From positions 1 through 62,795 of the forward strand of contig CALUPY010000012.1 in NCBI GenBank assembly GCA_944322755.1: a stretch of 62,795 bases of DNA, read 5' to 3'. Below are positions 10,473 to 49,458 of the stretch, in pieces. The DNA comes from Candidatus Gastranaerophilales bacterium (GTDB lineage Bacteria > Cyanobacteriota > Vampirovibrionia > Gastranaerophilales > Gastranaerophilaceae). Each line of letters opens with the position of its first letter. The stretch's first letter is position 1. The notes beneath the pieces were generated by a model. That model was not told the DNA's origin. It made no database searches and saw nothing but the letters and a program-made list of their open reading frames with translations. The position numbers and the translations under genes are program-made.

Positions 10473-10475
10473 ACA

Positions 10476-11087: not shown

Positions 11088-11091
11088 TTTT

Positions 11092-13697: not shown

Positions 13698-13754
13698 AAA
13701 TTCATTATATTATTATAATTATATATTATAGCGCAAATCACGGAAAGTAATAAA

Positions 13755-13788: not shown

Positions 13789-13808
13789 AATGTTTTGTGA
13801 AGTAAAAA

Positions 13809-15435: not shown

Positions 15436-15436
15436 T

Positions 15437-15865: not shown

Positions 15866-15905
15866 TTTTATGTCCTTTTTCTTTTTGTCTAATCTGATGG
15901 TTGTT

Positions 15906-15927
15906 CTGCCCGCAGTTTGGCGGGCAG
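15906..15927. other. intra-operon hairpin between rpoA and rplQ
   Basis: CTGCCCGC AGTTTG GCGGGCAG, a perfect 8-bp GC-rich stem with no T run, so not an intrinsic terminator. It could be an RNA-processing or mRNA-stabilising element separating rpoA from rplQ. Confidence 0.6.
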
Positions 15928-15938
15928 AGTTTATAAAT

Positions 15939-16931: not shown

Positions 16932-16958
16932 AATTTAATCTCCTAATTATTTACCGGA

Positions 16959-25958: not shown

Positions 25959-25962
25959 AATT

Positions 25963-26550: not shown

Positions 26551-26685
26551 CTGATCCTCTTGCTCGTGTGTAAACATGTAAACATTTTTTATACACAAAC
26601 TTTTTATGCTAAACTATATATATTATACAACATTTTGAATAAAATGTTGTATATCATAAATATCGAGACATTGGAGAGTAAATAC

Positions 26686-27720
26686 ATGTTTGATTTTGAT
26701 AAGGAAAGACTGGAAGGTTACATAAAAAAACTTAGCGAGCCGAAAGTTTTGATTATTGGGGATTTGGCTATTGATGAAATGGTATACGGTGATACGGAAA
26801 GAATCTCAAGAGAAGCCCCGGTTATCATCCTAAGACATTCAAATACAAAAATTATTCTCGGGCAGGCGGCAAACGCAGCGCACAACCTATCCACAATAAA
26901 CAACGGAAAAGTCTCGGCCATTGGTCTTTGCGGAAATGACTATTACGCACCGGTTCTTATAAATGCACTCAAAGAAGCAAAAATTAACACCGAGTTTATG
27001 GTCGAAGATTCTTCCCGCACAACCACAGTAAAATCAAGAATTTCCGGTGCAAGCTTTCATTCTGTTACGCAGCAGATTGTAAGGGTCGACAGAGTCGAAA
27101 ATGCAGCGCCATCGCCAGAAATAGAGGCTAAAATTATCAAAAATATAGAAAAAGCAATTCCATTGCATGACGCAGTCATACTCTCTGATTACAATATCGG
27201 CATGCTAACTGACAAAATAATCAGAACAACAATAGATTCTGCTAAAAAACATGGAAAAATTGTTGTAGTAGACGCTCAGAAAGATTTGGAAAGATATGAA
27301 GGTGCATATGCACTTACCCCTAATCAGCCTGATACAGAAAAATCAGTAGGTTTCTTTATCCGGGATGAACAAACACTGGAAAAAGCAGGAAGAGATCTTT
27401 TGAAAAAAACGAATGCAGAAGTTCTTCTGCTGACAAGAGGAGGTGACGGCATGGCCGTATTCGACAGAAAAGGTGCTCATGACGATGTTCCTGTTTTTAA
27501 TAAAACCAACGTTTTTGATGTAACAGGTGCCGGAGATACGGTTGTCGCAACATTCACACTTGCTCTTGCGGCTGGTGCATCTCCAAAATACGCAGCTATC
27601 ATAGGGAATCTTGCTGCAAGTATTGTTATTCGGTCTTTCGGATGCGCAACTACATCTATCGATGAAATATTAAAAAATTTAAAGAAATTAGATATGGAGA
27701 ATTTTATAATTAAGGTATAG
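26686..27720 (+). CDS. PfkB-family sugar kinase, RfaE1/HldE-kinase-like
   Basis: Predicted to phosphorylate C1 of a sugar 7-phosphate, most likely D-glycero-D-manno-heptose 7-phosphate, in the ADP-heptose pathway. 344 aa: VLIIGDLAIDEMVYGD at the N-terminus, GQAANAAHNLSTI as the substrate glycine-rich region, and NVFDVTGAGDTVVATF with the catalytic Asp of the GAGD motif. The C-terminal cytidylyltransferase of bifunctional HldE is absent, so it is a stand-alone kinase. ATG at 26686 follows GGAGAG; the open frame back to 26560 overlaps the divergent gene and is rejected. First gene of the envelope operon 26686-31349. Confidence 0.85.
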   Translation: MFDFDKERLEGYIKKLSEPKVLIIGDLAIDEMVYGDTERISREAPVIILRHSNTKIILGQAANAAHNLSTINNGKVSAIGLCGNDYYAPVLINALKEAKINTEFMVEDSSRTTTVKSRISGASFHSVTQQIVRVDRVENAAPSPEIEAKIIKNIEKAIPLHDAVILSDYNIGMLTDKIIRTTIDSAKKHGKIVVVDAQKDLERYEGAYALTPNQPDTEKSVGFFIRDEQTLEKAGRDLLKKTNAEVLLLTRGGDGMAVFDRKGAHDDVPVFNKTNVFDVTGAGDTVVATFTLALAAGASPKYAAIIGNLAASIVIRSFGCATTSIDEILKNLKKLDMENFIIKV

Positions 27721-27729
27721 GAGATTTTT

Positions 27730-28248
27730 ATGAAGAAGTTTATTCAAAAATTCAAACCGCTGGATATTGCAATACTCGGTGCAATTCTCGTTATTATTGT
27801 AATCGGAGTGCTTGTATATTTTGGCAAAAACAAAATATTCTCAAACAGCCCTGTTGAATTCACAAAGAAGATTGAATTTGAAGTTATGGTAAGAGGGGTC
27901 ACGCAGACAGATCCGAACATTCCATTTGTAACCGGTCAGGAAACTTTTATCACAATTAGAAATGTTCCTTATACAAAACTTAAAATTACCGGCGTTAAAT
28001 ATGCGCCAAAACAAATGGTAATCCCGGTAAAAGACGGGGACAAACCCTATATGATTGTACAGGATTTCAGCCAGCTTTATATGTATGACTATATTATAAA
28101 ACTGCAGGATATGGCTAAAATCACGAAAGACGGCGCTGTTGTCGGCGGAAACAAAATAAAAATCGGTATTCCGATTGTGCTTGAAGGTTTCAACTATCGT
28201 GTTAACGGAACTATTTCCAATGTTCAGATAATAGAAGATGTAAGATAA
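27730..28248 (+). CDS. DUF4330-like single-pass membrane protein
   Basis: 172 aa, with a cytoplasmic basic start (MKKFIQKFKPLDIA), one membrane helix (ILGAILVIIVIGVLVYFG) and a roughly 130-residue external beta-rich domain. Length, topology and the F-K-x-L-D-I-x-I-L-G start resemble DUF4330 proteins, which are common in cyanobacteria. The stop overlaps the ATG of the next gene (TAATG), so it is coupled to the O-antigen-ligase-like gene; a role in the same envelope process is inferred. Confidence 0.7.
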   Translation: MKKFIQKFKPLDIAILGAILVIIVIGVLVYFGKNKIFSNSPVEFTKKIEFEVMVRGVTQTDPNIPFVTGQETFITIRNVPYTKLKITGVKYAPKQMVIPVKDGDKPYMIVQDFSQLYMYDYIIKLQDMAKITKDGAVVGGNKIKIGIPIVLEGFNYRVNGTISNVQIIEDVR

Positions 28249-29633
28249 TGAGTGAAAGTACATTTTTAGACTTAGGCAACAAATTTATCGGTTTCTGCCA
28301 GAATAAACTTTCTTTTTTCTATGAAAAGAGCTTTATTCTCGGCAGTATAGACAATATAATTTTCTTTTTCATAGCAATGACGCTTATCTGCTCTACTTTT
28401 GTTCAAAGTGAACAGATTGGTATTCTTGCTATAGCAACAGTTCTTTTAACAATAATAAAACTGTTCATTAAAAAAGGCGCTGCTCTCAGAATTACCAAAG
28501 GGGACGGAATGCTGATTTTATATTTTCTTTTATGTATAATCAGCGTAATCAATTCAACCCTGATTCCTCAAAGCATACACGGATTTTTAAAAACCGTAAT
28601 ATATATAACATTCTATTTTGCAGCAGCAAATTATTTCTATGACAATAAAGGAAAAATAAAATACATACTCGGTTTAATAGGCCTCCTTTGTTTTATAGAA
28701 AGTATTATTGCAATTTTCCAGAATATACACGGAGTTGCGGCTATTGCGAAATGGCAGGACTCCCATTATGTTAATCCAGAAGATGTTATTTCAAGAGCAT
28801 ACGGAACACTAAAGCCATACAATCCAAATTTGCTTGGCGGATATCTGGTTTCCGGAATATCTTGTATTGCAGCGACAGGACTCCTGGCTGTTGCTAAAAA
28901 ACATTACAAAAGTTTTATATACAGCCTTATTATGTTTCTTGTCAGTGCTTATGCAATCTTTGTAACAGGTTCGCGCGGAGCATATCTGGGACTCGCCGTA
29001 ATAATAATCGGACTGCTTGTCATCTCCGGAAAAATCATATTCTCGGACTTTAATGCAGCAGAAAAAATTAAAAAATACTGGATGATAGTTACATCAGCAA
29101 TAGTAGCAGCCGTGATTGCTGTAATGATTGCTGTGCCAAAAGTAGCAAAAAGACTTTTTTCAATATTTTTGCTGCGAGGGGATTCTTCTACGTCTTTCAG
29201 AATGAATGTTTATCATTCATCTCTAGAAATGCTTAGAGATAACTGGATTCTCGGAATTGGAGTCGGAAATCAGACATTCCGCGAAATATACGGGTTGTAT
29301 ATGATGACGGGGTTTGACGCATTGAGCACCTACTGCGTGCCATTAGAAATTGCGGTAGAAAGCGGAATTTTTGCGCTTTTGTCTTTTGTTGCATTCCTCG
29401 GATACTTTATTGTGGATGCAATTAAATTTATCTCTCGTCCGAATGACCTAACCGGAAAGATAATACTTTCGTCGGTAATATTAACAGTTCTGGGTGTGAT
29501 GACGCACGGGCTGTTTGATACAATATACTTTAGACCGCAGGTTCAATTTGTTTTCTGGACAATGATTGCAATTGCTTCCGCAATTATAATCAGTTCCCGC
29601 GAGTGTGAAAAAGAGGAAGAAAAAAATGGATAA
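28248..29633 (+). CDS. O-antigen ligase-like / IctB-family membrane protein
   Basis: 461 aa with about 11 hydrophobic helices. Wzy_C/O-antigen ligase features are present: SRGAYLGLAVIIIGL before a large external loop, and GIGVGNQTFREIYGLY after it. Cyanobacterial homologues are annotated IctB (putative bicarbonate transporter), but O-antigen ligase/polymerase family membership is what the sequence shows. The gene overlaps the VKOR-DsbA start by 8 bp. Glycan transfer in the envelope is the more likely role, given the heptose-kinase-like gene upstream. Confidence 0.8.
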   Translation: MSESTFLDLGNKFIGFCQNKLSFFYEKSFILGSIDNIIFFFIAMTLICSTFVQSEQIGILAIATVLLTIIKLFIKKGAALRITKGDGMLILYFLLCIISVINSTLIPQSIHGFLKTVIYITFYFAAANYFYDNKGKIKYILGLIGLLCFIESIIAIFQNIHGVAAIAKWQDSHYVNPEDVISRAYGTLKPYNPNLLGGYLVSGISCIAATGLLAVAKKHYKSFIYSLIMFLVSAYAIFVTGSRGAYLGLAVIIIGLLVISGKIIFSDFNAAEKIKKYWMIVTSAIVAAVIAVMIAVPKVAKRLFSIFLLRGDSSTSFRMNVYHSSLEMLRDNWILGIGVGNQTFREIYGLYMMTGFDALSTYCVPLEIAVESGIFALLSFVAFLGYFIVDAIKFISRPNDLTGKIILSSVILTVLGVMTHGLFDTIYFRPQVQFVFWTMIAIASAIIISSRECEKEEEKNG

Positions 29634-30813
29634 ATCAAAGAGAATTACGCTGACAATACTGGCCTTAATAGGCTTTGCCCTTTCTATAGAGCTTTGTGTT
29701 GTTTATATAAATGCAAATTTTAATCCTTATGCGCTTTCCAGTTTTTGTTCTGTCAATGATCTTATCGACTGTGACGGCGCTGCGAAAACCGTACACTCCC
29801 AGTGTTTTGGTGTACCATTATGTTTTTGGGGAATATTTTTGTACTTCTTGTTCGCTTTCTTTACATATGTGGACAAAATTTCAAACCTCAAATTCCTCGG
29901 ATTTTTAAAAGTGTTCAAACATCCGGAAAGCTACCTGACAGCCCTAGGGCTTATTGCTTTTGTTCTGTCAATGGTACTTGCTGGTATATCTCTATTTGAA
30001 ATAAACAAAATATGCATACTCTGTTTCTGTACATATTTTATAAATCTTTTTGTTGCATTAGTCGCAAAACCGGCTGATGAAAGCTTTGTTGATGTTATAA
30101 AAACAAGTTTTGCCGACTTTATTGATGCACTAAAAGTTAAAAGATATGCAATATCATTCTTTATATTAGTACTCATCGCTATAGGCTTTTTGACCTACAC
30201 AACTATATCTAATGTCTTTACACCACAGGTCAAACAGTATAAGCAGCTTACTAAAACAGCAAAAGACTCATATAATGTTTCTGGCAATATACTCGGTGAT
30301 CCGGATGCAACGCTTGTTGTGGACTCATATACAGATTATCACTGCCCGTTCTGCTTTGTTCTGAATACAATGCTATACAGAGCTGCATCAGAACTTGATA
30401 ATGTAAAAATTGTCCATCATAATCTTCCTCTCGACAATGCCTGCAACAAATACATGCCCGGACCAATGCATGACGGTTCGTGTCTGATGGCAAAATATGC
30501 AATAGCAGCAGGAAAGCAGGGCAAATTTCTTGAACTGAACACAGCAATGTTCGATAAAGAAGCAGAGATTAAAACAGAAGAAGACATTTTAGCAGTGGCT
30601 AAAAAACTTAATCTTGATATGGAAAAACTTCAAACTGATGCCCACAGCAAAGCGGTAGAAGAAGAGCTTTTAAAAGATATTGATAAGGCAAACGAGCTCG
30701 GCATAGACGGAACACCTGCTCTGCGTATAAATATGGAAACAAAAGTCGGTATAATCAGCTATGATGAACTCAAAGAAAAACTGATAAAAGCCGGAGCAAA
30801 GGAAAGGAAATAA
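29626..30813 (+). CDS. VKOR-DsbA fusion (disulfide-bond formation)
   Basis: 395 aa. The N-terminal 180 residues are a vitamin K epoxide reductase domain with 4-5 helices: the loop cysteines (SSFCSVNDLIDCDG, then SQCFGVPLCFWG) and the quinone-side CxxC (NKICILCFC). Residues ~205-395 are a periplasmic DsbA-type thioredoxin domain with active site DYHCPFCF, joined by a further helix. It should oxidise cysteines of exported proteins and pass electrons to quinone. ATG at 29626 follows GAGGAAG within the upstream gene. Likely clients include the cysteine-containing exported proteins at 32958 and 33327. Confidence 0.93.
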   Translation: MDKSKRITLTILALIGFALSIELCVVYINANFNPYALSSFCSVNDLIDCDGAAKTVHSQCFGVPLCFWGIFLYFLFAFFTYVDKISNLKFLGFLKVFKHPESYLTALGLIAFVLSMVLAGISLFEINKICILCFCTYFINLFVALVAKPADESFVDVIKTSFADFIDALKVKRYAISFFILVLIAIGFLTYTTISNVFTPQVKQYKQLTKTAKDSYNVSGNILGDPDATLVVDSYTDYHCPFCFVLNTMLYRAASELDNVKIVHHNLPLDNACNKYMPGPMHDGSCLMAKYAIAAGKQGKFLELNTAMFDKEAEIKTEEDILAVAKKLNLDMEKLQTDAHSKAVEEELLKDIDKANELGIDGTPALRINMETKVGIISYDELKEKLIKAGAKERK

Positions 30814-30815
30814 AT

Positions 30816-31349
30816 TTGGCAGAATCTTTATTGCTTCATGCCTGCTGTGCAGTGTGTATGGCATATCCGATACAAAAACTTATTGAAAACGGTTACGATG
30901 TGACCGTTTTCTTCTTCAACCCGAATATTTCCCCCGTTGAAGAATATGAAAGACGACGTGATGAACTCATTAAATACTGCAAGAAAATGGGTTACAAATA
31001 CATAATCGGAGACTGCAATCATTCAGACTGGCTTGAATATATAAAGGGATTCGAGAATGAACCCGAAAAAGGCAAAAGATGCAATCTCTGTTTTAAATTC
31101 CGATTAGAACAGACTGTAAAAAAAGCAATTGAACTCGGGATAAAGAATTATACAACTACGCTGACTGTAAGCCCTCATAAGGTTTCACGCGAAATTTTCA
31201 ATGCAGCTGATTCCCTCTCAGATTACGGAATAAATTTTATCCGTGAGGATTTTAAAAAACAGAACGGTTTTTTAAAAACTATGCAGCTTGCGCGAGAAAA
31301 TGAATTTTACCGCCAGCAGTATTGCGGATGTGAATTTAGCATCAGATAG
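30816..31349 (+). CDS. queH: epoxyqueuosine reductase QueH
   Basis: Catalyses the last step of queuosine formation in tRNA, replacing QueG in many bacteria. 177 aa with all cysteine motifs: LLLHACCAVC at the N-terminus, RCNLCFKFR, and QQYCGCEFS near the C-terminus, the ligands of the [4Fe-4S] cluster and adjacent iron. The start is TTG at 30816 with AAAGGAAA upstream, 2 bp after the VKOR-DsbA stop. Last gene of the operon. Confidence 0.95.
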   Translation: MAESLLLHACCAVCMAYPIQKLIENGYDVTVFFFNPNISPVEEYERRRDELIKYCKKMGYKYIIGDCNHSDWLEYIKGFENEPEKGKRCNLCFKFRLEQTVKKAIELGIKNYTTTLTVSPHKVSREIFNAADSLSDYGINFIREDFKKQNGFLKTMQLARENEFYRQQYCGCEFSIR

Positions 31350-39402: not shown

Positions 39403-39521
39403 GCGGATTCGAGCCGGGCTACCGATTTCATTAAATTATTCTCCTCTCGCCCCATTGCGTATGGATAGGATAAAGTGGGGAGCGATTAAATGCAACCATT
39501 GTATTTTATGCAAAAAATTTC

Positions 39522-39548
39522 TGTCATCCTGAACTTGTTTCAGGATCT
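39522..39548. repeat. intergenic palindrome TGTCATCCTGAA type
   Basis: ATCCTGAA CTTGT TTCAGGAT hairpin within TGTCATCC...GGATCT. Partial or variant copies at 18-30 and 57783-57802. Confidence 0.6.
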
Positions 39549-39679
39549 TAACTGTACAGCGTATACAACTTACTGAGCCAGTGAGATCATTAGGCACACA
39601 CTATTGATTAATAAATCCAGCGACAAAGACGACACTAGACTCGTGTAATTAACATACACAATAAGATAGAATTAACTAT

Positions 39680-39891
39680 GGCAAGATAGAAACAGGAAAA
39701 ATTATCCATCATTAGACAATTTTTTGAAAATTATAGAAGTATTAGGCTTATCCTTAAAAGATTTTGGCTTAAAAGAAACAAATATCTGTTCGGAAAATAA
39801 AGAACAACTGTTAAAGATTATCAATACTTCAACAGAAGCACAACTTAGCCTTTATATAGATATGATCAATATGTTGAAAAAGCATTTTTAA
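39680..39891 (+). pseudogene. C-terminal remnant of an XRE-family regulator
   Basis: GKIETGK (39680-39700), then, after loss of one A in an A5 run, YPSLDNFLKIIEVLGLSLKD and on to the stop at 39889-39891. IETGKNYPSLDNFLKIIEVL is the typical helix 3-5 region of HTH_3 domains. Helices 1-2 and the start codon are missing. The tail (about 45 residues after the HTH) is unrelated to the two other XRE genes here. Confidence 0.65.
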
Positions 39892-39986
39892 TAACAAATT
39901 TCGCCAAGGTTTTTGAGATAGTCCATATTAGCCTCAATAGCCTCTTTTTTGCCTGAAATCATATAATGTTTGCCATTTTTTTTCAT
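39888..39986 (-). pseudogene. short open frame, probable C-terminal gene remnant
   Basis: From the ATG at 39986 it reads MKKNGKHYMISGKKEAIEAN and ends LKNLGEICY; the frame continues upstream without a start (to about 40065). It overlaps the XRE remnant tail to tail. It looks like the end of a larger protein and has no recognised family. Confidence 0.25.
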
Positions 39987-40138
39987 AAATTCAGTAGATA
40001 AGTGATAGTTATTTTGTAATGCTCTAAAAAAATAACTCAAAAATTGTAAAAAAAATTCATAAAATTATAAAATACTAACAAATATAATTATTCAGGATTT
40101 TTAAATGACTAAATAACTAATTATAATTAGGAGACATC

Positions 40139-41626
40139 ATGAAAGTATATTTAAACACTACAACAAAAGCAAACTATTCTAACAATTTAAACCGGTATAA
40201 CAATACAAACAGCCCTTATTCAACTTTTCTTCAAAACAGCGACAAATTGGAACTTTCAGGCAAAACCAACCCGAATCTCTCTTTTAAAGCAACCTTTTGG
40301 AAACATGTTACCGCCGGAATCTCCGCAGGAGCAGCAAGCGGCGCGGCAATAGGAACAAAAGTCGGCGGTGTTGTTGATTTAGGCACTGCGGGGGCGTCAT
40401 TGGGAGTTCCAACTGCTACAGGAGCAACTGTTGGAACAGTTCTAGGCGGTATAACAGGCGCAATTGGCGGAACCGTCTCATACTTTACTTGCCAAAGCCG
40501 TGAAGAAATAAAAAAAGCTGCTGCTGAAGAAGCTGCCAAAATACAAAAAGAAAAAGCTGCTCTTGAAGCAAAAGCAAAAGCACTTGAAGAACAACAAAAC
40601 ATTGCAGATGCCAAAAATCAAGAAGCCCTGGAGAAAAAACAAGCTCAACTTGATGAATTAAAAGAACAAAACAGAATTTTAGAAAAATATGCAGTCAAAA
40701 AATACGAAGAAGCTAACGGTGTGGGTTTGGGCAGAATTGCAGGGTATTATGAAGATAAAAATCTTCTAAACGCTGCATTTATTTCACCTTATAAAAAAAG
40801 TTTTAACCCGGAAACAAAATACGAATCTTACAATGTTCCTAACGGCGTTTTGCTGTACGGTACTTCAGGAAACGGTAAAACAACATTAGCTGAAGGTATT
40901 ATTGAAGAATTAATGAATACAACTGATACAGAGTATTACAATTTATCACATTTAAATAGAGCAAAACTTGAGGACAAACTCAGTGAAATAAAAGAAAAAG
41001 CACAACAAGATTGGGAAAATAACCACAAAAGAACAATTATATTTTTAGATGAATTTGACAGATTTGCGCCAAATCCAAGTATTATTAAAAGAACACTTCA
41101 AGGCGATGATGCCGAAAATCCGTCAAACGGCTATCTTAAAAGCTTTATGAACGATTGTTCTAAATTCGGTATTACGATAATTGCAACAACAAACTATCCG
41201 AGAAATATCGAAAAACCGTTTATCGACAACGATAGCAGATTTTCTGTAAGAACAGCAATAGAACCGCCGAAAGCTGAAGATATTACACAAATTTTAAATT
41301 ACTATCTTGAAGGAGTATCAGATGATACGGTTAATTTGAAAGAAATTACAGATATTTTAATCAAAAAAACGGATAAGGATAAAGCTATGTACTCTTCTTC
41401 AAAAATCGAAAAGCTTGCAGAAAAAACAAAAGACAAAGCTAGAAAAGAAAAAAGATTTGTTTCTCAAGAAGATTTGTTAAAAATAGCAAATAAAACCAAT
41501 CCAAATATTGATAGTGAAGATATAGAAAGCTTCAAAGAGGATTTTGAATTTATAACAAATATGACTTATGAAGAATATCTTGACGAGAAAGAAGAACTTA
41601 AACAAAAAGAAAATACAGAGGAATAA
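40139..41626 (+). CDS. AAA+ ATPase with glycine-zipper membrane segment and LSFKA motif
   Basis: 495 aa. Residues 1-46 are Asn/Thr/Ser-rich; LSFKA is at 47-51. Residues ~57-115 form a Gly/Ala-rich glycine zipper (GISAGAASGAAIG, GATVGTVLGGITGAIGG) that probably inserts in a membrane. A charged coiled coil follows (~120-185). The AAA+ module has Walker A GTSGNGKTT at 241-249, Walker B IIFLDEFDRF (Asp304-Glu305), sensor 1 IIATTNYP, and an arginine in DNDSRFS. An acidic tail ends the protein. AGGAGA precedes the ATG. First gene of a four-gene operon (gaps 2, -4 and 1 bp). ATP-driven remodelling at a membrane is inferred; the family is not named. Confidence 0.88.
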   Translation: MKVYLNTTTKANYSNNLNRYNNTNSPYSTFLQNSDKLELSGKTNPNLSFKATFWKHVTAGISAGAASGAAIGTKVGGVVDLGTAGASLGVPTATGATVGTVLGGITGAIGGTVSYFTCQSREEIKKAAAEEAAKIQKEKAALEAKAKALEEQQNIADAKNQEALEKKQAQLDELKEQNRILEKYAVKKYEEANGVGLGRIAGYYEDKNLLNAAFISPYKKSFNPETKYESYNVPNGVLLYGTSGNGKTTLAEGIIEELMNTTDTEYYNLSHLNRAKLEDKLSEIKEKAQQDWENNHKRTIIFLDEFDRFAPNPSIIKRTLQGDDAENPSNGYLKSFMNDCSKFGITIIATTNYPRNIEKPFIDNDSRFSVRTAIEPPKAEDITQILNYYLEGVSDDTVNLKEITDILIKKTDKDKAMYSSSKIEKLAEKTKDKARKEKRFVSQEDLLKIANKTNPNIDSEDIESFKEDFEFITNMTYEEYLDEKEELKQKENTEE

Positions 41627-41628
41627 AT

Positions 41629-42231
41629 TTGTCCACACCCGTTTTTAAAGACTTTTATAACCACCTGGCAGCAGTTGATAAAACGAATTATCAACTGCCT
41701 GTTGCTTCGAAAAAAAAGCAAAAATATACTATGCTGCTAACTCTTGCAGGAACTGCGGCAGGTATAATTCAACCTTCTTTAAAAGTCAATAAAAACATAA
41801 ACATGCAATACGCTGTTTTTGCAAAAGAAAAACTAAAACCAATAATGACACCAGAGTTTGACAAAACACACAGGCATCAATGCATACCAAGATTCAGCAA
41901 AAATCCGATTACGCATATAAAACAAATTAAATACAGCATAAAAAATTATGATGAAGATATATTCAGTTATCAAGAAAGTCTCTCTAAATCCAAAAATGAC
42001 ATTGAACTTGAAAAAACACTTATAAATATTCAAATGAAAAAACTCAAGCTACAACAGTTTCTGGCTGAGTATAAATATATTTTTGAAGATATAAACTTGC
42101 AATTTAAAGCAAAAATGCGTGAAAAATTTGTGAAAAAAACTATTAGTGGGATTTTAATTTGGTCAACAATTGGTACTCTTGCCGGAATTGCATTAGATAA
42201 AATAAAAGAAAAAGGCTCTGCTGTAAAATGA
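41629..42231 (+). CDS. small membrane/coiled-coil protein of the AAA+ operon
   Basis: 200 aa, not recognised. A first hydrophobic stretch (YTMLLTLAGTAAGIIQ, ~34-49), then a charged coiled-coil-like region (~100-160, KNDIELEKTLINIQMKKLKL), and a second hydrophobic helix near the C-terminus (TISGILIWSTIGTLAGIAL). This predicts a hairpin-like membrane protein with a helical domain between. It starts at TTG (41629) with GAGGAA upstream, 2 bp after the ATPase stop. It lacks the Ser-Phe motif of its neighbours. Confidence 0.75.
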   Translation: MSTPVFKDFYNHLAAVDKTNYQLPVASKKKQKYTMLLTLAGTAAGIIQPSLKVNKNINMQYAVFAKEKLKPIMTPEFDKTHRHQCIPRFSKNPITHIKQIKYSIKNYDEDIFSYQESLSKSKNDIELEKTLINIQMKKLKLQQFLAEYKYIFEDINLQFKAKMREKFVKKTISGILIWSTIGTLAGIALDKIKEKGSAVK

Positions 42232-43157
42232 AAATAAGTTCAGTACAATATACAATAAGACAATATCAATCTTCTTGGTCATTTAAAGGAAAAACTATAA
42301 ATGGTCACTATTATACCGATCAAGAATACGTTGATGCAATGAAATATAAATCATACGGTCGGGTCGATTATTCATACTTTATTGACAGATATGGTTTTTT
42401 TGAATATGTCTTTACAAAAAACCCTGAAAGACACGCTAATGAAGTAAATAAGTGTATTAATGATATTAAAGAAGAGGAAAAACGGAAAAATGCTATAAAA
42501 GAAGAAAAATCAAGAGCGATAGAAAAAGCAAAACAGGAATTATCAAAAAAAATAGAAAATATTGAGAAAAAAGAAAATGATAGAAAAAAAATTATAGCAA
42601 AATATACCAACCTTGATAAAAATACAGAACTATTATCGTGCGGTTTGTCGCAGGAGAACATAGAACAACTATCTGAAGAACTTTTCCATCCTTATGGCGA
42701 AAGTATTGCGAATGAGGCGCAATACCCTAATACGCCTAATGGTGTACTTATACAGGGTGGCAACGCCGCACAGAATGAAAAAGCTGCAAAAGCGATTGCC
42801 AGTCAAATACAACAGGAAAACATAATGTCAAACTTCCAACAAGTAAATTTTGATGGGAATATTGAAAAATTCCAAAATGATTTACAAAGAATTAAAGCAA
42901 TTGCAAATCAAAAATATCCTCAAAAAAAAGAGATGACTGTAATTTATATACCTGATTTTGATAAAATTGCACTAAAACCTAACAAAGCTGATTACATACC
43001 TGAATTAAACAGTTTTTTAAAAGTTTATATGTTAAATTGTGCTAAAAACGGATGCATTTTATTAGCGACAGCTAAAGACGGAAGTAAAATAGAATCTCCG
43101 TTTTTGATAAATGATAAACGCTTTGGTGTTGTTATAAATTTAGAAAACGAGGATTAA
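42228..43157 (+). CDS. pseudo-AAA+ paralogue with degenerate Walker motifs, WSFKG motif
   Basis: 309 aa. WSFKG at 17-21, a coiled coil at ~75-125, then a domain that aligns along its whole length with the AAA+ module of the first gene. PNGVLIQGGNAAQNEKAA replaces PNGVLLYGTSGNGKTT (the P-loop Gly-Lys-Thr is lost, residues 177-187); VIYIPDFDK replaces IIFLDEFDR (Walker B Asp-Glu becomes Pro-Asp); the sensor region ILLATAKDG replaces IIATTNYP; FLINDKRFGV keeps the following Arg. It should bind or hydrolyse ATP poorly or not at all and may be a structural partner in a mixed ring. ATGA overlap with the preceding gene. Confidence 0.85.
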   Translation: MKISSVQYTIRQYQSSWSFKGKTINGHYYTDQEYVDAMKYKSYGRVDYSYFIDRYGFFEYVFTKNPERHANEVNKCINDIKEEEKRKNAIKEEKSRAIEKAKQELSKKIENIEKKENDRKKIIAKYTNLDKNTELLSCGLSQENIEQLSEELFHPYGESIANEAQYPNTPNGVLIQGGNAAQNEKAAKAIASQIQQENIMSNFQQVNFDGNIEKFQNDLQRIKAIANQKYPQKKEMTVIYIPDFDKIALKPNKADYIPELNSFLKVYMLNCAKNGCILLATAKDGSKIESPFLINDKRFGVVINLENED

Positions 43158-43158
43158 G

Positions 43159-46100
43159 ATGAGAATTACACTAAATTTAAGCCAGAAAAATACCATGGCA
43201 ATAAAGAAAAAAAGCTCGCTTAATTTACAACAATTAAAAACAGTGCCAATAAATGATGTTAATACAAACAACATTACACTGAGCAGTTTTATATTTCCTG
43301 CAGCACAAATATCTTTTGGGCAAAATCAATTTCAACCTGATGAGGATAATGCTCTTTTTAATGAGGAAGATGCAACCAGCTTTAGCATAAAACTTTTTAA
43401 CGACATAAATAAATTTTTATCAACATATAAAAACAAAACTCCTGAATCTGAATCATTATACCTGTTAAATCAGGATATAAAAGACAAAGCAATCTCAACA
43501 AAAAATATAACAATAATGAATAATGCTTCTGCAAAACAAGTAAATGCAGAACTTGTCGATATGTTTAACTTTGCGTCGGCAAATAAAATTCAAACAAATA
43601 TGCATACATATCTTTTTGATAATTCTACTGCTGATGAAATAAAAGCAAAGAAAATTTATCTCTCAGACAAAGCTTTTTCTTCAAAAAACGAAGCAGAAAC
43701 AGTCTGGCTTAAGGATAACGCAACAGCTGAAAACATTATAGCTAATAATGTTTATCAAAGGAACAACTCTAAAACTAATGCAATTTCAACAAAAAACTTT
43801 TTTGCTGCAGACAATATTAACTGTGAAAATTTAACTGCCAACAACATTTTGCTTAAAAATTCTGCTAATGTTCAGAATGCAATTATAAAAGGCGGAGAAG
43901 TTGTCCTGTATAACAATGCAAAAATTAACAATTTAAATACCAAAAATTCCAAAATAATATTAAATAAAAATACATCTATTACAAATATTACATCTGAAGG
44001 TAATCTTACAATTACAGGCAACGGAACTATCGGTGACGTAGATATAAATGGCACTCATTTATTTCTAAACGGACCGGTAAAGATAAACGGAAAAATAAGA
44101 TTTTCAACTCCTGACGGAGTAGTAATAGCTCAAAGGGGTAAACAAAATATATTTCCAAAAATTGATTCATCAATGGTAGAAAACGGAATACTCCAATTTT
44201 TAATCAGTGATAAAAATAATGTATATTTAGGAAACCCCGTAGATGTTTTTGCTTCAGGTTTAAGCATTCTGAATAATAACATAGCAGAAGAAAAGAATAA
44301 AGAACAAATTCCGGTCTATTTAAACGACAGCTCTATAATCTCAGAGATTAACAATAATCCTGAAATAAAAAGTCTTTATGTTGATTTTTATAAAGACAAT
44401 CTGCAATTATTATCAAATGATAACAAAGCAAAAGTTTTCTCTTTGTTCTGGACAAAAAATGCAAAACTGGGAGAAAAAAAGCTGGCAGACTTGTGGATGG
44501 AAATATTGGGCAAACAAGCAGAATCAATACCTGATACCCAAAAAACATACAAAATAAACAATCTCTCTGAGAGTGAAAGAAAACTTTTATTGGAAAAAAC
44601 AACACTGTACTGGTTCAAAAATCTTTTGCCTCAAATAACAACAGAACAAAATTTTAATGATTTTAATTGTTACAAACAAAATTTGGATACAATTGAAAAA
44701 TTGTTAGATAATTTAGACCAAGATAAAGAAAATATCCAAAAGACCTTGAGTGATAACAAAATTTTGTATGAAAAACTCAATTCACTACAACTTGATAACC
44801 AATCTCTTCTTGACTTTTGGTTAAAGAACGACAATCAAAAATTTACTCAAGATATAACAGAAAGATTAAAAAAGCAGCATTTGAATGAACTTCTGGAAAG
44901 TAAAAACAGACGCCAAAAAATTATTAATATAACTAAAGATGAACTAAAAAATCAAAAGAACTTTATAGAAGCTTATGAGTTTGCCTGTGATGATTTGATT
45001 AAAAACGAACCTGAACTTGATAAATTGCAGCAAAAATTGCTTGAAAAATACAAAAATAGTAAAGTGTTCTACCAAATTATTTCAGAAACAGCAAATAAAA
45101 CAAATGATACAAAAAAAATAGAAATTGAAATAATAAAAATCTTGCAATCTTTAACTAATGAATACAGACAGTTATCTATTGATGCAAGAAAAAATATATT
45201 CGACAAGACCTTGAATGTAGCGAATGTAATAACAGCAAAACCGAACACAGAGTTAGACAACTATGTAAACTTTGTATTCACCGCTCTATCACAAAATGTC
45301 CACAAAATGCAAAAAGAAGAACTGTTTGATTTTGTAAATGACACTAATGCTTTCAAAAACTTTGTAAGTAAAAATTCTGCATATTTTAGTGACTATTGGC
45401 TGGATATGGTAAAAAACGCATACCGGTTTTATGACACAAAAATGCTTGATATGATTACAAAAAACAATCTTAAATTGTTATATTCAAATGAACAAAACAA
45501 GAAAAATTCCTCAAATAAAATTGCAGAATTTGTAAACACACTGCAAAAAAATTCGGCTGATACAATTGAACAAAAAGAATTTGTCTCTCGTTTCAAAGAT
45601 AATATCAATTTTGAAAAATTGATGAATAACAGCGGTATAGATCAGAAAAAAGCACTAACTGACTTGTTAATGACAGAAGCTTTAAACGAAAACTTATATC
45701 TAAATCGTCTTAATTCCTACCCAAAATCTATTACACCGGATTCTGTAAAAGAAAATCTGGATTTAACTGATAAATACCTTGTTCTGTTAGACAAAGACTA
45801 TTCAGATATGTCTATTCAAGAAAAATACCAAACTATTTCAAAAGTGCCGGATGAAGAATTCAGATTAATGAACCGATTAATTTTTAGTGATTGGAAAAAA
45901 CACGAACTCCAAAATCTTTTAAATAATAAGTTTGTATTAATGCAGCTTGAATATAATGCCAATGCGCAGAGTAAAAACATAAAAGACAATTTAGAAACAA
46001 TAAATCATAACCTTAACAATATAAGAATAAATATCGCAGGTCAAAATTATACTTTACAGGAAATGGCAGCAAACCTTGATACTCTTGTTAATATAAGCCA

Positions 46101-46542
46101 AAAATCTTTTAAGGAGCTATATTTCATAGGTGAAAATATTGAGGCAATAAACGGCAATACACAGAGCATAAACGCTAACACAAGAGCGGTTTTGTATGCA
46201 ACTATGCAAAACTCCAAATTTAGGGATCCTGAATTGTCTAAAACAATTGAAGAATTGCTTCCTGTTACCGAAAGAGGTTCCTTTTCTGACTTTTTATCCG
46301 AGGTTGAAAAAAAATACAAAAAAATGAAAGATGAAAAAAAGAAAAAAGAACTAAAACAAATTGCAAATCTAGCAATGATTGCAGCGGCAGCTTCTGGTAT
46401 TGGATATATTGAACCATCAGTTATAACAGGCTTTTTAGGCGGGGGAGAAATTCTTACCCATGCAATTTCAGCAATAAAACCAATAGCAGACACCCTAAAA
46501 CATGTCGCTATTTTCAAAGCTGCAACAACAGGAATGAAATAA
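43159..46542 (+). CDS. large beta-solenoid/helical protein of the AAA+ operon, ISFGQ motif
   Basis: 1127 aa, no family recognised. ISFGQ is at 51-55. Residues ~105-330 are a repetitive beta-solenoid: short turns such as ISTKNITIMNNASAKQVNA, AKKIYLSDKAFSSKN and TAENIIANNVYQRNN repeat about every 20 residues, like bactofilin or pentapeptide-type polymers. Residues ~370-1050 are charged helix. The C-terminus (~1070-1127) has a lysine-rich stretch and two hydrophobic, Gly/Ala-rich segments (IANLAMIAAAASGIGYI). ATG is 1 bp after the preceding stop. As the last and largest gene of the operon it may be the client, track or scaffold for the AAA+ pair; this is inference. Confidence 0.8.
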   Translation: MRITLNLSQKNTMAIKKKSSLNLQQLKTVPINDVNTNNITLSSFIFPAAQISFGQNQFQPDEDNALFNEEDATSFSIKLFNDINKFLSTYKNKTPESESLYLLNQDIKDKAISTKNITIMNNASAKQVNAELVDMFNFASANKIQTNMHTYLFDNSTADEIKAKKIYLSDKAFSSKNEAETVWLKDNATAENIIANNVYQRNNSKTNAISTKNFFAADNINCENLTANNILLKNSANVQNAIIKGGEVVLYNNAKINNLNTKNSKIILNKNTSITNITSEGNLTITGNGTIGDVDINGTHLFLNGPVKINGKIRFSTPDGVVIAQRGKQNIFPKIDSSMVENGILQFLISDKNNVYLGNPVDVFASGLSILNNNIAEEKNKEQIPVYLNDSSIISEINNNPEIKSLYVDFYKDNLQLLSNDNKAKVFSLFWTKNAKLGEKKLADLWMEILGKQAESIPDTQKTYKINNLSESERKLLLEKTTLYWFKNLLPQITTEQNFNDFNCYKQNLDTIEKLLDNLDQDKENIQKTLSDNKILYEKLNSLQLDNQSLLDFWLKNDNQKFTQDITERLKKQHLNELLESKNRRQKIINITKDELKNQKNFIEAYEFACDDLIKNEPELDKLQQKLLEKYKNSKVFYQIISETANKTNDTKKIEIEIIKILQSLTNEYRQLSIDARKNIFDKTLNVANVITAKPNTELDNYVNFVFTALSQNVHKMQKEELFDFVNDTNAFKNFVSKNSAYFSDYWLDMVKNAYRFYDTKMLDMITKNNLKLLYSNEQNKKNSSNKIAEFVNTLQKNSADTIEQKEFVSRFKDNINFEKLMNNSGIDQKKALTDLLMTEALNENLYLNRLNSYPKSITPDSVKENLDLTDKYLVLLDKDYSDMSIQEKYQTISKVPDEEFRLMNRLIFSDWKKHELQNLLNNKFVLMQLEYNANAQSKNIKDNLETINHNLNNIRINIAGQNYTLQEMAANLDTLVNISQKSFKELYFIGENIEAINGNTQSINANTRAVLYATMQNSKFRDPELSKTIEELLPVTERGSFSDFLSEVEKKYKKMKDEKKKKELKQIANLAMIAAAASGIGYIEPSVITGFLGGGEILTHAISAIKPIADTLKHVAIFKAATTGMK

Positions 46543-46552
46543 GTTTTTTTAA

Positions 46553-47158
46553 CTAACACAAAGCAAACATAAAGTTATTTAAGAAAGCTACATCAGGCTT
46601 TTCCATATCAAGATATCCTAAATTAACAGAAGTTTGCTTCAGATCTGTAAGCAGATTTGTGCTGTCTTTAATATATATTTTTAAATCATCGCTAAATTTT
46701 GATTTAAAAAATTTATTTATATTATTTACACAGTCGAAAACATTTGTATTGGCTTGAAAAAGTAAAACATCAGGAATCATTACAGGTCTGTAATAAGGTG
46801 ACGAAACAGTTGCCATTGCATTTTGTTTTTTTTGTTCCAGTGTAGATACTATTGTCGTCAGTTTTTTAAAATCGTGCGGGGAATTGAAATATTTACTTTC
46901 GGCCAATTCTCTAAATGCAGGAGTTTGAAGATATTTTTGTACATAATATGCCTGATTTGAACCATCCAGGCAATCTTGAATAGCTACCAATTTGGCATAT
47001 TCTTTTTGTCTAAGCAGGTTTATCTCAGTATTTTCGTTATAAGGTCCAATATTTAAACTTTTAAGCAAATTATCAAGCGGATTTGGCAACGGCTGCATAG
47101 GTGTCATTATATAATTAGTTTTACATTTATTCGCCGCCTGAATCGTTTGAATAACCAT
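46553..47158 (-). CDS. hypothetical protein downstream of the metallopeptidase
   Basis: 201 aa, not recognised. Soluble, helix-rich, with three cysteines and no signal peptide. It lies 1 bp after the metallopeptidase stop (47160) on the same strand, so the two are an operon and this may be a partner, chaperone or inhibitor. Convergent with the AAA+ operon; only 10 bp separate the stop codons. An alternative ATG at residue 18 (MTPMQPLPNP) is possible. Confidence 0.6.
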   Translation of the reverse strand: MVIQTIQAANKCKTNYIMTPMQPLPNPLDNLLKSLNIGPYNENTEINLLRQKEYAKLVAIQDCLDGSNQAYYVQKYLQTPAFRELAESKYFNSPHDFKKLTTIVSTLEQKKQNAMATVSSPYYRPVMIPDVLLFQANTNVFDCVNNINKFFKSKFSDDLKIYIKDSTNLLTDLKQTSVNLGYLDMEKPDVAFLNNFMFALC

Positions 47159-47159
47159 A

Positions 47160-48047
47160 CTAACCTCCTGCTATATTATACCAAGCATTGTTAACAAGAT
47201 CAGCCAATTTTTTATCATGTTTTCCTGCCTGATAAAAAGGATTGCGTGTAACTGTCAACGTGTCAGGATCTAAAACATCCACAACCTCTTTTGTTATTGC
47301 TTCAGCAATAAGTTCAAAAGGATTCCCTCCTTTTATGATATCCGAGCGTAATCTTATGCCTGCAGCATATTCACTGATTTCTTTTTTTATTATTTCCATT
47401 TGTTGCGGAGTATATCTTGATGATTGCATTTGTTTGAGGTGTTCTATTCCTGAAACATAAGGATTAGGGTCATAATATGCCCCATTAAAAGTATTATATC
47501 TTTGTAATGTTTTGGGGCAAGTTCCGTCATAACCAAATACTCTATATAACAAATCATTATGAATATTATGAACCCATTCATGTATTATTGTATGAAGAAA
47601 ATGGTTCGTTGAATTACATCCTGAGCGATGCTGCGACTCTGCCAGTGCATCCATTTCTGCCAAAGTTTTCATTTTTTCATTATTGTAAAATATAGATCTG
47701 GTTTCATAAACACCTTTGCCTGAAATAATTTTTTCAGAATCAGGCAAACAAAAACCAAGACAACCTGTATTATTATAATTAATCAAGTCCCAATCGTGGT
47801 ACACTGTCAAACAAGGAGGCTTTACCCCAAATGGCAATTTGTATTTATTAGTTAATGTTTCAAAAATATCATTAACAATACCGCAACAATATGCAATGGC
47901 TCGATTGTTTTTAAAATCTGCATTAACCCCTTGCTTTTTGAACAATCGTTCTATACCTGCAGCAGAATACTGCGCTGCTCGAAATTTTATTGTCGGCGTC
48001 AGACCGGCTTTAAATGAAACTCTTTGTGGATTATTTTTTATTTTCAC
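47160..48047 (-). CDS. predicted zinc metallopeptidase (HEXXH) with VSFKA motif
   Basis: 295 aa. VSFKA at 10-14, right after the MKIKNN start. The zinc motif is HTIIHEWVHNIHND: His156, Glu157 and His160. A second acidic segment, NPFELIAEAITKE (Glu245/Glu249), is placed like the third ligand of gluzincins. Nine or so cysteines are scattered in the first two thirds. There is no signal peptide, so either it acts in the cytosol or the N-terminal motif has a targeting role. Substrate unknown. Cotranscribed with the 201-aa gene at 46553. Confidence 0.72.
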   Translation of the reverse strand: MKIKNNPQRVSFKAGLTPTIKFRAAQYSAAGIERLFKKQGVNADFKNNRAIAYCCGIVNDIFETLTNKYKLPFGVKPPCLTVYHDWDLINYNNTGCLGFCLPDSEKIISGKGVYETRSIFYNNEKMKTLAEMDALAESQHRSGCNSTNHFLHTIIHEWVHNIHNDLLYRVFGYDGTCPKTLQRYNTFNGAYYDPNPYVSGIEHLKQMQSSRYTPQQMEIIKKEISEYAAGIRLRSDIIKGGNPFELIAEAITKEVVDVLDPDTLTVTRNPFYQAGKHDKKLADLVNNAWYNIAGG

Positions 48048-48196
48048 TTTAGTTCCTCTGATATTTTAAGTTTAAAAAAAATATTTTTTGCGGATACTTT
48101 GTATTAATTTTAACAATTGTTAAAATTAATACAATAAAATAACAAATTTAAAAATTTTTAAATATTATACAAGTAGTATTAAAAGAGAGGCATAAT

Positions 48197-48700
48197 ATGA
48201 TAAAAGCAATTTCTTTGGCAATGAATTATGGATTAACTAAAACTACATCAAAAAAAACTATTCAGCACAAATCAAATTATCAACAATCACCAATTTCTTT
48301 TTCCGGAATAATGGATAACCCTGGAGCAAAACGAGTTACAGATGCAAACGGAAATACATACATAATTGAGTCTGGAGGTACTCTTGTAATACATAACGGT
48401 GATAAAGAAAATAAAAGAGGAGTCCAAGATGCATTAACAGGGGCAGGCATTGGCGCTGCAGGTACTTCCGTAGTTAACAAAAAAGTAAACCAGAACAACA
48501 ATCACACGCAAACAACAGACCAAGATGATAAACAACCTCACGAATATACAAAAAATGAAACAGATAATATTGACGATATTAAAAATACTGGTTCCTCAGA
48601 TGATATAAAAGATGAGTCAGATTATAATCATGATACAAACTATGATGATGACGATGATGATTCTATTTTTGACGACTCACATTCGATTTATGAATTCTAA
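48197..48700 (+). CDS. hypothetical protein with ISFSG motif and acidic tail
   Basis: 167 aa, not recognised. ISFSG is at 33-37 after a Lys/Thr/Ser-rich start. Next come TDANGNTYIIESGGTLVIHN, a possible beta-hairpin, and a small Gly/Ala stretch (DALTGAGIGAAGTS). The last 60 residues are strongly acidic and disordered, with a run of Asp (YDDDDDDSIFDD), which could bind divalent cations or a basic partner. Ribosome site AGAGAGG before the ATG. A terminator follows at 48775-48811. Confidence 0.65.
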   Translation: MIKAISLAMNYGLTKTTSKKTIQHKSNYQQSPISFSGIMDNPGAKRVTDANGNTYIIESGGTLVIHNGDKENKRGVQDALTGAGIGAAGTSVVNKKVNQNNNHTQTTDQDDKQPHEYTKNETDNIDDIKNTGSSDDIKDESDYNHDTNYDDDDDDSIFDDSHSIYEF

Positions 48701-48774
48701 ACCCTATCTTTTAAAATTGATTTTGAAATTAAGGATATAAAATACAAAGTGCTTTACCCCGCACCTCGAAATTT

Positions 48775-48811
48775 TAAAAAGAGACTTTTTTTAAGAAAAA
48801 GCCTCTTTTTT
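48775..48811 (+). terminator. terminator after the acidic-tailed protein gene
   Basis: AAAAAGAG (48776-48783) pairs with CTCTTTTT, with an inner CTTTTT/AAAAAG extension, followed by T6. Confidence 0.75.
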
Positions 48812-48891
48812 AGTATTAAAAGTCTCTAAATTTTGTCTCTAAAATAAATAAAACAGCCGCAAATCCACAGCAGGTCAAGACAATTCCGCAT

Positions 48892-48924
48892 TAAAAAGTC
48901 CACCTCAAAAATCTGGGTGGACTT
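48892..48924 (-). terminator. minus-strand terminator beyond the tRNA-Ser repeats
   Basis: AGTCCACC (48897-48904) pairs with GGTGGACT (48916-48923); T5 on the minus strand. It would catch transcription reading through from tRNA-Ser and its repeats. Confidence 0.7.
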
Positions 48925-48928
48925 AAAA

Positions 48929-49370
48929 TCGGAGAGGGTGGGATTGTCTTGGATTTTCTTCTGGCTCACAGAGATTCGCCTTTTGAGCTATGCTCAAGTC
49001 GGCTCATTCTGCTCGCTCTCCGGGCTGGGTTCACTTCGTTCACACGGCGCCCGTCCGAAAATCCGCTCGAACCATTACAAGGCTTCGCCTTGTGGTTCTC
49101 ATCCCACGGAGACGAAAAAGACCCTTACGGGTCTATAATCTTTAAAAAATCGGAGAGGGTGGGATTGTCTTGGATTTTCTTCTGGCTCACAGAGATTCGC
49201 CTTTTGAGCTATGCTCAAGTCGGCTCATTCTGCTCGCTCTCCGGGCTGGGTTCACTTCGTTCACACGGCGCCCGTCCGAAAATCCGCTCGAACCATTACA
49301 AGGCTTCGCCTTGTGGTTCTCATCCCACGGAGACGAAAAAGACCCTTACGGGTCTATAATCTTTAAAAAA
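48929..49370. repeat. two identical 221-bp tandem repeats that start with the tRNA-Ser 3' end
   Basis: Units 48929-49149 and 49150-49370 appear identical. Each begins with TCGGAGAGGGTGGGATT, which is the reverse complement of the acceptor 3' strand and part of the T-arm of tRNA-Ser; the third occurrence (49371) is the real tRNA. The rest of each unit is GC-richer than its surroundings and carries small hairpins: TTGAGC TAT GCTCAA, CAAGGC TTC GCCTTG, and AGACCC TTAC GGGTCT. Open frames through it are artefacts of the repeat. Confidence 0.9.
49335..49355 (-). terminator. tRNA-Ser intrinsic terminator
   Basis: On the minus strand AGACCC GTAA GGGTCT followed by T5, 17 nt beyond the tRNA 3' end. 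The same hairpin is repeated one unit away at 49114-49134. Confidence 0.7.
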
Positions 49371-49371
49371 T

Positions 49372-49458
49372 CGGAGAGGGTGGGATTCGAACCCACGGTG
49401 GACTTGCGCCCACACAGACTTTCGAGGTCCGCACCTTAAACCACTCGGACACCTCTCC
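49372..49458 (-). tRNA. tRNA-Ser(CGA)
   Basis: Minus strand: acceptor GGAGAGG pairs with CCTCTCC, discriminator G as expected for serine. Anticodon stem CGGAC/GTCTG with loop CTCGAAA gives anticodon CGA. Long variable arm (GTGTGGGCGCAAGTCCACC) of class II, T-loop GGTTCGAATCC. CCA not encoded. Its 3' 17 nt are repeated twice downstream. Confidence 0.96.

What the first reader, a model, noticed from the sequence alone, without database searches (positions are those of the whole stretch)
40139..46542. Four-gene operon: active AAA+, membrane protein, pseudo-AAA+ and giant beta-solenoid protein
Seen: gaps of 2, -4 and 1 bp; gene 1 has intact Walker A/B and a glycine-zipper segment, gene 3 aligns to the AAA+ module of gene 1 with Walker A and Walker B destroyed, gene 4 is an 1127-aa protein with a beta-solenoid region, a long helical region and a hydrophobic end. 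Three of four share an N-terminal Ser-Phe motif. Established: paired active/inactive AAA+ subunits form asymmetric motors (e.g. origin recognition, dynein-like and some secretion ATPases). Inference: a membrane-associated machine, perhaps for assembly, secretion or contact-dependent interaction. No component matches a system I know.
Basis: partly seen in the sequence, partly recalled or inferred. Interest (0 to 1): 0.87.

Follow-up and report, generated by a model that had tools for sequence, protein, structure and literature searches.

The report
Gut bacterial paired AAA+ membrane machine
A gut bacterium related to cyanobacteria carries a previously undescribed gene cassette that appears to build a membrane-bound protein motor from one working and one broken motor subunit plus a giant partner protein, and the same kit recurs, reshuffled, across its bacterial order.

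Summary
Genes 1-4 have the stated coordinates and spacing. Gene 1 is an intact classical AAA+ ATPase; gene 3 is its paralogue with both Walker motifs lost. Gene 4 is a right-handed beta-helix, a ~570-aa helical domain and a hydrophobic tail. Beyond that: (i) three more genes (5-7, one a HExxH zincin) travel with the operon in identical order in five genomes, under purifying selection. (ii) Gene 4's C-terminal half defines an order-restricted family of at least three subtypes (27 of 383 Gastranaerophilales genomes; one borderline fragment outside). 21 of 25 such loci sit beside, or are fused to, AAA domains; the other four are truncated. (iii) The pseudo-AAA keeps the arginine finger; in two relatives the active AAA lacks it while the pseudo-AAA has it, as in Torsin/LAP1. 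(iv) The 'Ser-Phe' motif is a lineage-wide N-terminal signature ([IVL]SFK[GSA]) in 66 of 122 system proteins (shuffles: mean 7, maximum 16). Best explanation: a membrane-tethered hetero-AAA+ protein-remodelling machine with gene 4 as dedicated adaptor/scaffold. Substrate and biological role are unknown. A strong, testable finding; the function remains inference.

The parts
40139..41626 (+). gene 1: active classical AAA+ ATPase (495 aa) with N-terminal SFK motif, glycine-zipper segment (~60-117), coiled coil, AAA module (~195-470)
   Evidence: PF00004 E 3.8e-16; closest solved relatives VCP-like/Cdc48 and CdvC/Vps4; alignment A5
40859..40882 (+). gene 1 Walker A GTSGNGKT (residues 241-248)
   Evidence: sequence; invariant core GNGKTT in 5 orthologues
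41036..41059 (+). gene 1 Walker B IIFLDEFD (residues 300-307)
41237..41239 (+). gene 1 putative arginine finger R367
   Evidence: invariant in 5 orthologues; alignment position, not shown functionally
41629..42231 (+). gene 2: 200-aa protein with two hydrophobic segments (~37-55 and ~174-190) and helical middle; probable membrane anchor
   Evidence: no family match; conserved in five genomes
42228..43157 (+). gene 3: pseudo-AAA+ (309 aa), no P-loop, no Walker B, no lid domain, arginine finger kept
42756..42782 (+). gene 3 degenerate P-loop GGNAAQNEK (residues 177-185)
42936..42962 (+). gene 3 degenerate Walker B TVIYIPDFD (residues 237-245)
43119..43121 (+). gene 3 retained arginine-finger position R298 (NDKRF)
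   Evidence: R298 and F299 invariant in 5 orthologues; aligned with NDSRF of gene 1
43159..46542 (+). gene 4: 1127-aa giant partner
43606..44232 (+). gene 4 beta-helix head (residues 150-358)
   Evidence: AlphaFold pLDDT ~90; pertactin Z 13.7, rmsd 3.6, 233 aligned
44236..45963 (+). gene 4 helical domain (residues 360-935), core of the order-restricted CTD family
46348..46428 (+). gene 4 Ala/Gly-rich hydrophobic stretch (~residues 1064-1090)
   Evidence: sequence; similar stretch in all subtypes
46553..47158 (-). gene 5: 201-aa protein of unknown family
   Evidence: co-inherited in five genomes
47160..48047 (-). gene 6: zincin-type metallopeptidase (295 aa)
   Evidence: alignment A7 of 15 copies
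47568..47582 (-). gene 6 HEWVH motif (residues 156-160); H163 and E245 also invariant
48197..48700 (+). gene 7: 167-aa protein with SFSG motif and acidic tail
   Evidence: co-inherited in five genomes
40277..40291 (+). SFK motif of gene 1 (LSFKA)
42276..42290 (+). SFK motif of gene 3 (WSFKG)
43309..43323 (+). SFK motif of gene 4 (ISFGQ)
48006..48020 (-). SFK motif of gene 6 (VSFKA)
48293..48307 (+). SFK motif of gene 7 (ISFSG)
39404..49366 (.). accessory segment absent from the three congeneric genomes; homology with them stops sharply at both edges
   Evidence: congeners lack genes 3 and 4

Best explanation
The operon encodes a membrane-tethered, ATP-driven protein-remodelling machine. Gene 1 is the ATPase (Cdc48/Vps4-like classical AAA) and probably sits on or in the membrane through its glycine-zipper segment. 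Gene 3 is a nucleotide-free AAA+ subunit that joins gene 1 in a mixed ring and lends its arginine finger, activating or polarising it as LAP1/LULL1 does for Torsin. Gene 4 is the dedicated partner of the ring: its helical C-terminal half docks on the AAA module (in subtype B the two are one polypeptide), its Ala/Gly tail anchors to the membrane, and its exchangeable N-terminal head (beta-helix here, HEAT repeats or a pseudo-AAA elsewhere) recognises or scaffolds the substrate. Gene 2 is a second membrane anchor. The zincin gene 6 probably cleaves or processes what the motor unfolds or extracts. The N-terminal SFK motif shared by most subunits is probably a common localisation or recognition tag. 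Shown: genes, homology, motif loss and retention, conservation, fusions, predicted folds. Inferred: ring assembly, activation, membrane topology, docking, substrate, the protease partnership and the motif's role.
For: Gene 3 is an AAA paralogue without nucleotide motifs but with an invariant arginine finger. In G138 and G217 the active AAA has no arginine there while the pseudo-AAAs have one, a complementary pattern, as described for LAP1/Torsin (PMC4358337). AAA and CTD are fused in L060, and degenerate AAA and CTD in L062-L064. 21 of 25 CTD loci carry AAA genes, the rest being truncated. Identical seven-gene order in five genomes with dN/dS 0.14-0.48. Closest solved relatives of gene 1 are protein unfoldases/disassemblases. 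Zincin genes recur in subtype A and C clusters.
Against: No interaction, ATPase or localisation data. In the window itself gene 1 keeps its own arginine finger, so it might work alone. In subtype C both AAAs keep Walker A, so the dead partner is not universal. The zincin family is far commoner than the CTD (87 of 286 genomes) and often stands without AAA or CTD genes, so it may be an independent passenger. Membrane anchoring rests on hydrophobicity only. Gene 4's C-terminus was predicted with low confidence.
Confidence: 0.5

Rival explanations
1. An exported or injected protein set: the SFK-containing, polar, acid-poor N-terminus is an export signal, and the AAA pair, zincin and repeat-headed giant act outside the cell, for instance inside a eukaryotic or bacterial target.
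For: Carriers of the motif rarely have signal-peptide-like cores (4/111 against 69/476) and have Asn/Ser/Thr/Gln-rich, acid-poor N-tails. Other carriers include ankyrin and HEAT proteins, proteases, CheR-like methyltransferases and a phosphatase, a list that resembles effector repertoires. FliP/FliQ/FliR/FlhB-like genes lie near the block in G133, possibly by chance.
Against: An ATP-dependent motor would work only where ATP is present; several subunits have membrane segments; no chaperone, no export system co-inherited with the block; AAA, TPR and HEAT proteins are equally ordinary in the cytosol.
Confidence: 0.18
2. An anti-phage or other conflict module: a patchy accessory cassette in a variable site, with AAA motor, membrane-active giant and protease, analogous to AAA/protease defence pairs.
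For: Patchy distribution (27 of 383 genomes; absent from three congeners), low GC, sharp edges of the accessory segment; weak PADLOC matches of gene 1 to IetA and TRIP13; a phage-like gene and a helicase/restriction-like gene near one distant locus (L068).
Against: The PADLOC matches cover only the generic AAA domain; no other gene matches any defence model; no serine protease, HORMA or nucleotidyltransferase partner; no relatives in phage, viral or plasmid collections.
Confidence: 0.15
3. A machine that assembles or dismantles a submembrane polymer: gene 4's beta-helix head polymerises like a bactofilin and the AAA pair remodels the filament, as Vps4 does for ESCRT-III.
For: The gene 4 head is a beta-helix and is related to L023 proteins, one of which matches PF04519 Bactofilin at 8.9e-11; Vps4/Cdc48-type AAAs are the closest solved relatives of gene 1.
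Against: The gene 4 head itself has no Bactofilin match even at E 10, and the link scores carry strong composition bias. The head is replaced by HEAT repeats or a pseudo-AAA in other subtypes, so polymerisation cannot be the shared core function.
Confidence: 0.12

Closest known systems
Torsin with LAP1/LULL1 (nucleotide-free AAA+ activator domain), PMC4358337
   Same: An AAA+ ATPase paired with an AAA-like, nucleotide-free, membrane-linked partner that keeps the arginine finger; in G138 and G217 the active partner lacks its own finger, as Torsin does.
   Different: Gene 1 is of the classical AAA clade (Cdc48/Vps4-like), not Torsin; in the window gene 1 keeps its finger; giant partner, zincin and SFK motif have no Torsin counterpart.
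Vps4/CdvC and Cdc48/VCP (classical AAA disassemblases)
   Same: Closest solved relatives of the gene 1 AAA module; best NCBIfam match is CdvC, far below its cut-off.
   Different: No MIT or Cdc48 N-domain found; instead glycine-zipper segment and coiled coil; single AAA module with a dead paralogue.
FtsH-type membrane AAA proteases
   Same: AAA motor, membrane link and a zinc protease in one gene neighbourhood.
   Different: Protease encoded separately and convergently; gene 6 matches no peptidase family in Pfam.
IetAS anti-phage system
   Same: AAA ATPase next to a protease gene; weak IetA match of gene 1.
   Different: Match limited to the AAA core; protease is a zincin rather than the serine protease known for IetS (own knowledge); giant and pseudo-AAA absent from IetAS.
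Bactofilin (PF04519)
   Same: Right-handed beta-helix; related order-specific proteins match the family.
   Different: Gene 4's own head does not match the model; large extra helical and hydrophobic parts.

Membership tests
Classical AAA ATPase (gene 1) | AAA module with Walker A and Walker B | tested here: met
   PF00004 60.2 bits against cut-off 21.2; GTSGNGKT and IIFLDEFD
Classical AAA ATPase (gene 1) | sensor 1 Asn and arginine finger | tested here: met
   TTN at 350-352 and R367 invariant in five orthologues
AAA+ ATPase, catalytic (gene 3) | Walker A and Walker B | tested here: not met
   GGNAAQNEK and IYIPDFD; none in five orthologues
Nucleotide-free AAA+ activator (LAP1/LULL1-like, gene 3) | AAA-like domain without nucleotide motifs but with a conserved arginine finger | tested here: met
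   R298 invariant, aligned with R367 of gene 1; alignment-based only
Torsin/LAP1 system | active ATPase lacks its own arginine finger | tested here: not met
   gene 1 keeps R367 in the window type; the feature is met in G138 and G217 relatives only
Torsin/LAP1 system | alternating hetero-hexamer in which the pseudo-AAA stimulates ATP hydrolysis | not testable with these tools
   needs complex prediction and biochemistry
FtsH-type AAA protease | AAA and M41 zinc peptidase in one chain | tested here: not met
   separate genes; gene 6 has no Pfam peptidase match
IetAS | IetA ATPase at full-length score with its IetS protease | tested here: not met
   best IetA match E 2.1e-7 over part of the AAA domain; no IetS-like gene among genes 1-6
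Zincin metallopeptidase (gene 6) | HExxH with a third metal ligand | tested here: met
   H156, E157, H160 invariant, with H163 and E245 as candidate ligands in 15 copies; activity not tested
Bactofilin (gene 4 head) | PF04519 match | tested here: not met
   no match up to E 10 for three gene 4 heads; only relatives in L023 match
Known fold for gene 4 helical domain | significant structural match in PDB | tested here: inconclusive
   no Foldseek hit with E under 0.001; best VIA Z 6.9, confined to the low-confidence C-terminal part

The most novel reading that the evidence does not exclude
Gastranaerophilales possess a lineage-specific N-terminal sorting or recognition tag ([IVL]SFK[GSA] after an Asn-rich tail) that defines a large protein network, and the hetero-AAA+/giant-partner machines described here are the engines that sort, export or remodel the tagged proteins: a new protein-targeting system.
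Probability: 0.2. Interest if true: 0.92.

Novelty: new variant of a known kind. Interest (0 to 1): 0.72.

Why it matters
It is an undescribed, modular, order-restricted multi-gene machine in largely uncultured gut relatives of cyanobacteria. It offers an apparent bacterial parallel to the Torsin/LAP1 principle (a dead AAA+ lending an arginine finger) that can be tested with two proteins. It also exposes a lineage-wide N-terminal motif on many unknown proteins; explaining that motif would help explain a sizeable set of proteins of unknown function in these genomes.

Tried and rejected
Pfam, NCBIfam, PADLOC and PHROGs on the cassette's proteins: nothing credible beyond the AAA domain; other matches to gene 1 are low-complexity glycine-zipper hits. 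PDB by sequence: gene 1 only; one chance hit for the zincin, none for gene 4, only coiled-coil-like chance hits for gene 3. Fold searches of the full gene 4 model and of its C-terminal part: the head matches generic beta-helices (pertactin, GlmU, LpxA); no significant Foldseek hit; for the C-terminal part the best Z is 6.9 to SLC9C1 in a low-confidence region, treated as noise. Viral, phage and plasmid collections: no gene 4 relatives. Class and phylum outside the order: only one borderline 53-residue match (E 1e-3, G427), treated as chance. A whole-genome DNA pattern for MK[IV]..SFK was too loose and too close to its control to use. Literature searches on these bacteria with secretion, AAA, effectors or metalloproteases found nothing relevant. 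A simple empty site could not be shown: left and right flanks lie on different contigs in the three congeners, so a rearrangement or, less likely, a contig mis-join remains possible; the block itself is replicated in four other assemblies. The whole genome was not available as a file, so motif statistics use the window and fetched stretches only, not a full proteome.

Full report
Observation. Gene 1 is a classical AAA ATPase (PF00004 E 3.8e-16) whose closest solved relatives are archaeal VCP-like/Cdc48 and CdvC/Vps4 proteins. Gene 3 is homologous to the AAA module of gene 1 (BLASTP ~4e-17; profile comparison 99.1%, E 1.3e-18). Its P-loop reads GGNAAQNEK instead of GTSGNGKTT and its Walker B IYIPDFD instead of IFLDEFD, while the arginine-finger segment NDKRF matches NDSRF of gene 1; R298 and F299 are invariant in five orthologues. 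Gene 3 ends where the AAA lid would begin.

Gene 4. AlphaFold2 with 14 homologues gives a beta-helix (residues 150-358, pLDDT ~90), a long helical domain (360-935, ~85) and a poorly predicted C-terminus with an Ala/Gly-rich hydrophobic stretch. The head resembles generic right-handed beta-helices (pertactin Z 13.7, rmsd 3.6, 233 aligned). It is related by sequence to beta-solenoid proteins of G054 (E 1e-17, with strong composition bias but a shared capping motif), one of which matches Bactofilin at 8.9e-11; gene 4 itself does not. The helical domain gave no significant structural match.

The unit is larger than four genes. In G045, G133, G240 and G008 the operon is followed, in the same order and orientation, by a convergent pair (gene 5; gene 6, a zincin) and by gene 7. 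All seven genes are under purifying selection (dN/dS 0.14-0.48). In gene 6 the HExxH residues, a further His and a downstream Glu are invariant across 15 divergent copies. The block has 31.0% GC against 36.8% for the rest of the window. It lies in a segment (39404-49366) whose edges are sharp against three congeners that lack genes 3 and 4. The flanks of that segment are not adjacent in the congeners, so the site is a variable one rather than a clean insertion.

A family of systems. The C-terminal half of gene 4 (CTD) defines a family with at least three subtypes: A (window type, and HEAT-headed versions in another family of the order), B and C. Profile comparisons give 100% (E 6e-61) for A against B and 98.7% (E 2.6e-16) for A against C. 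The union of three searches is 27 of 383 genomes of the order. Outside the order there was one borderline 53-residue match, and none in viral, phage or plasmid collections. The window's own genome holds a second, subtype C system (G000:C7). Of 25 CTD loci examined, 21 have active and/or degenerate AAA genes in the cluster; the other four are cut by contig or fetch ends. Subtype C clusters repeat a fixed order: TPR protein, giant, membrane-HEAT proteins, two AAAs, zincin.

Why the AAA pair and gene 4 look like one machine. In L060 an active AAA is fused to the CTD; in L062-L064 a degenerate AAA is fused to it, with a separate Walker A-bearing AAA in L063 and L064. In L065 an AAA ORF overlaps the CTD ORF in another frame, so that gene is probably frameshifted. 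In L060 and L061 the active AAA has no arginine in the finger position while the neighbouring pseudo-AAAs keep one, the complementary pattern described for Torsin and LAP1 (PMC4358337). In the window both keep it, and in most subtype C clusters both AAAs keep Walker A, so the dead partner is chiefly a feature of subtypes A and B.

The Ser-Phe motif. Of 122 proteins of these systems, 66 have [SA]F[KGTSQ][GASRNQ] in the first 75 residues (shuffles: mean 7, maximum 16 of 300), against 24 of 598 internal segments of the same length; the consensus is [IVL]SFK[GSA]. Related genes count separately here, so the number of independent events is smaller. Its Phe is invariant in 15 zincins whose N-termini otherwise vary in length and sequence. 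Carriers begin MK[IV]-like in 53/111 cases against 61/476, and rarely have a signal-peptide-like core (4/111 against 69/476). Samples from two genomes of the class outside the order show no enrichment. Other carriers include M16 peptidases, CheR-like methyltransferases, a HAD phosphatase and ankyrin proteins. The motif is therefore not special to this operon; its function is unknown.

Interpretation. I commit to a membrane-tethered hetero-AAA+ remodelling machine with a pseudo-AAA activator and gene 4 as dedicated adaptor/scaffold (0.5). The rivals are an exported set, a defence module, or a polymer-handling machine. Assembly, activation, topology, substrate and the role of the zincin are inference. 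'Works like Torsin/LAP1' is supported by motif logic; 'is a Torsin system' is not claimed, because gene 1 is closest to the classical AAA clade and, in the window, keeps its own arginine finger.

Noticed in passing
window 39697-39888: Remnant of an XRE-type regulator (95% identical over 64 aa to an intact 107-aa one at G133:C3:15314-15637) just upstream of the operon, not found upstream of the operon in the other four genomes.
   Followed up: partly
window 48925-49387: Perfect 242-bp tandem duplication at the right end of the accessory segment.
   Followed up: no
L079 (G000:C7) 6049-17487: The same genome carries a second, subtype C system: zincin, two intact AAAs, three membrane-HEAT proteins, giant, TPR protein.
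   Followed up: partly
L024 (G027:C2) 8159-12205 and 5065-8142: A 1348-aa protein with SFK motif and four tandem AAA modules, next to a 1025-aa ankyrin protein that also carries the motif.
   Followed up: no
L133, L137, L139: SFK-type zincins also stand without AAA or CTD genes, with a ~905-930-aa protein close by that resembles the M16 peptidases of L019 and L124 (M16 assignment of these three not tested).
   Followed up: no
L141 (G136:C3) 3915-10100 and L138 (G187:C6) 9213-13522: Further AAA plus zincin clusters (L141 also with a pseudo-AAA) without a recognisable CTD protein: possible additional subtypes.
   Followed up: no
L017 1-8218 and L122 1110-7328: In two genomes a subtype A and a subtype C system lie beside the same conserved gene group, which also occurs at window 25287-31349: a possible insertion hotspot.
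   Followed up: no
L023 (G054:C57) 10030-15275: Three consecutive SFK-type beta-solenoid genes; two match Bactofilin, and two are detectably related to the gene 4 head.
   Followed up: partly
L065 (G288:C39) 6256-9199: AAA and CTD lie in overlapping ORFs of different frames, suggesting a frameshifted fused gene or an assembly error.
   Followed up: no
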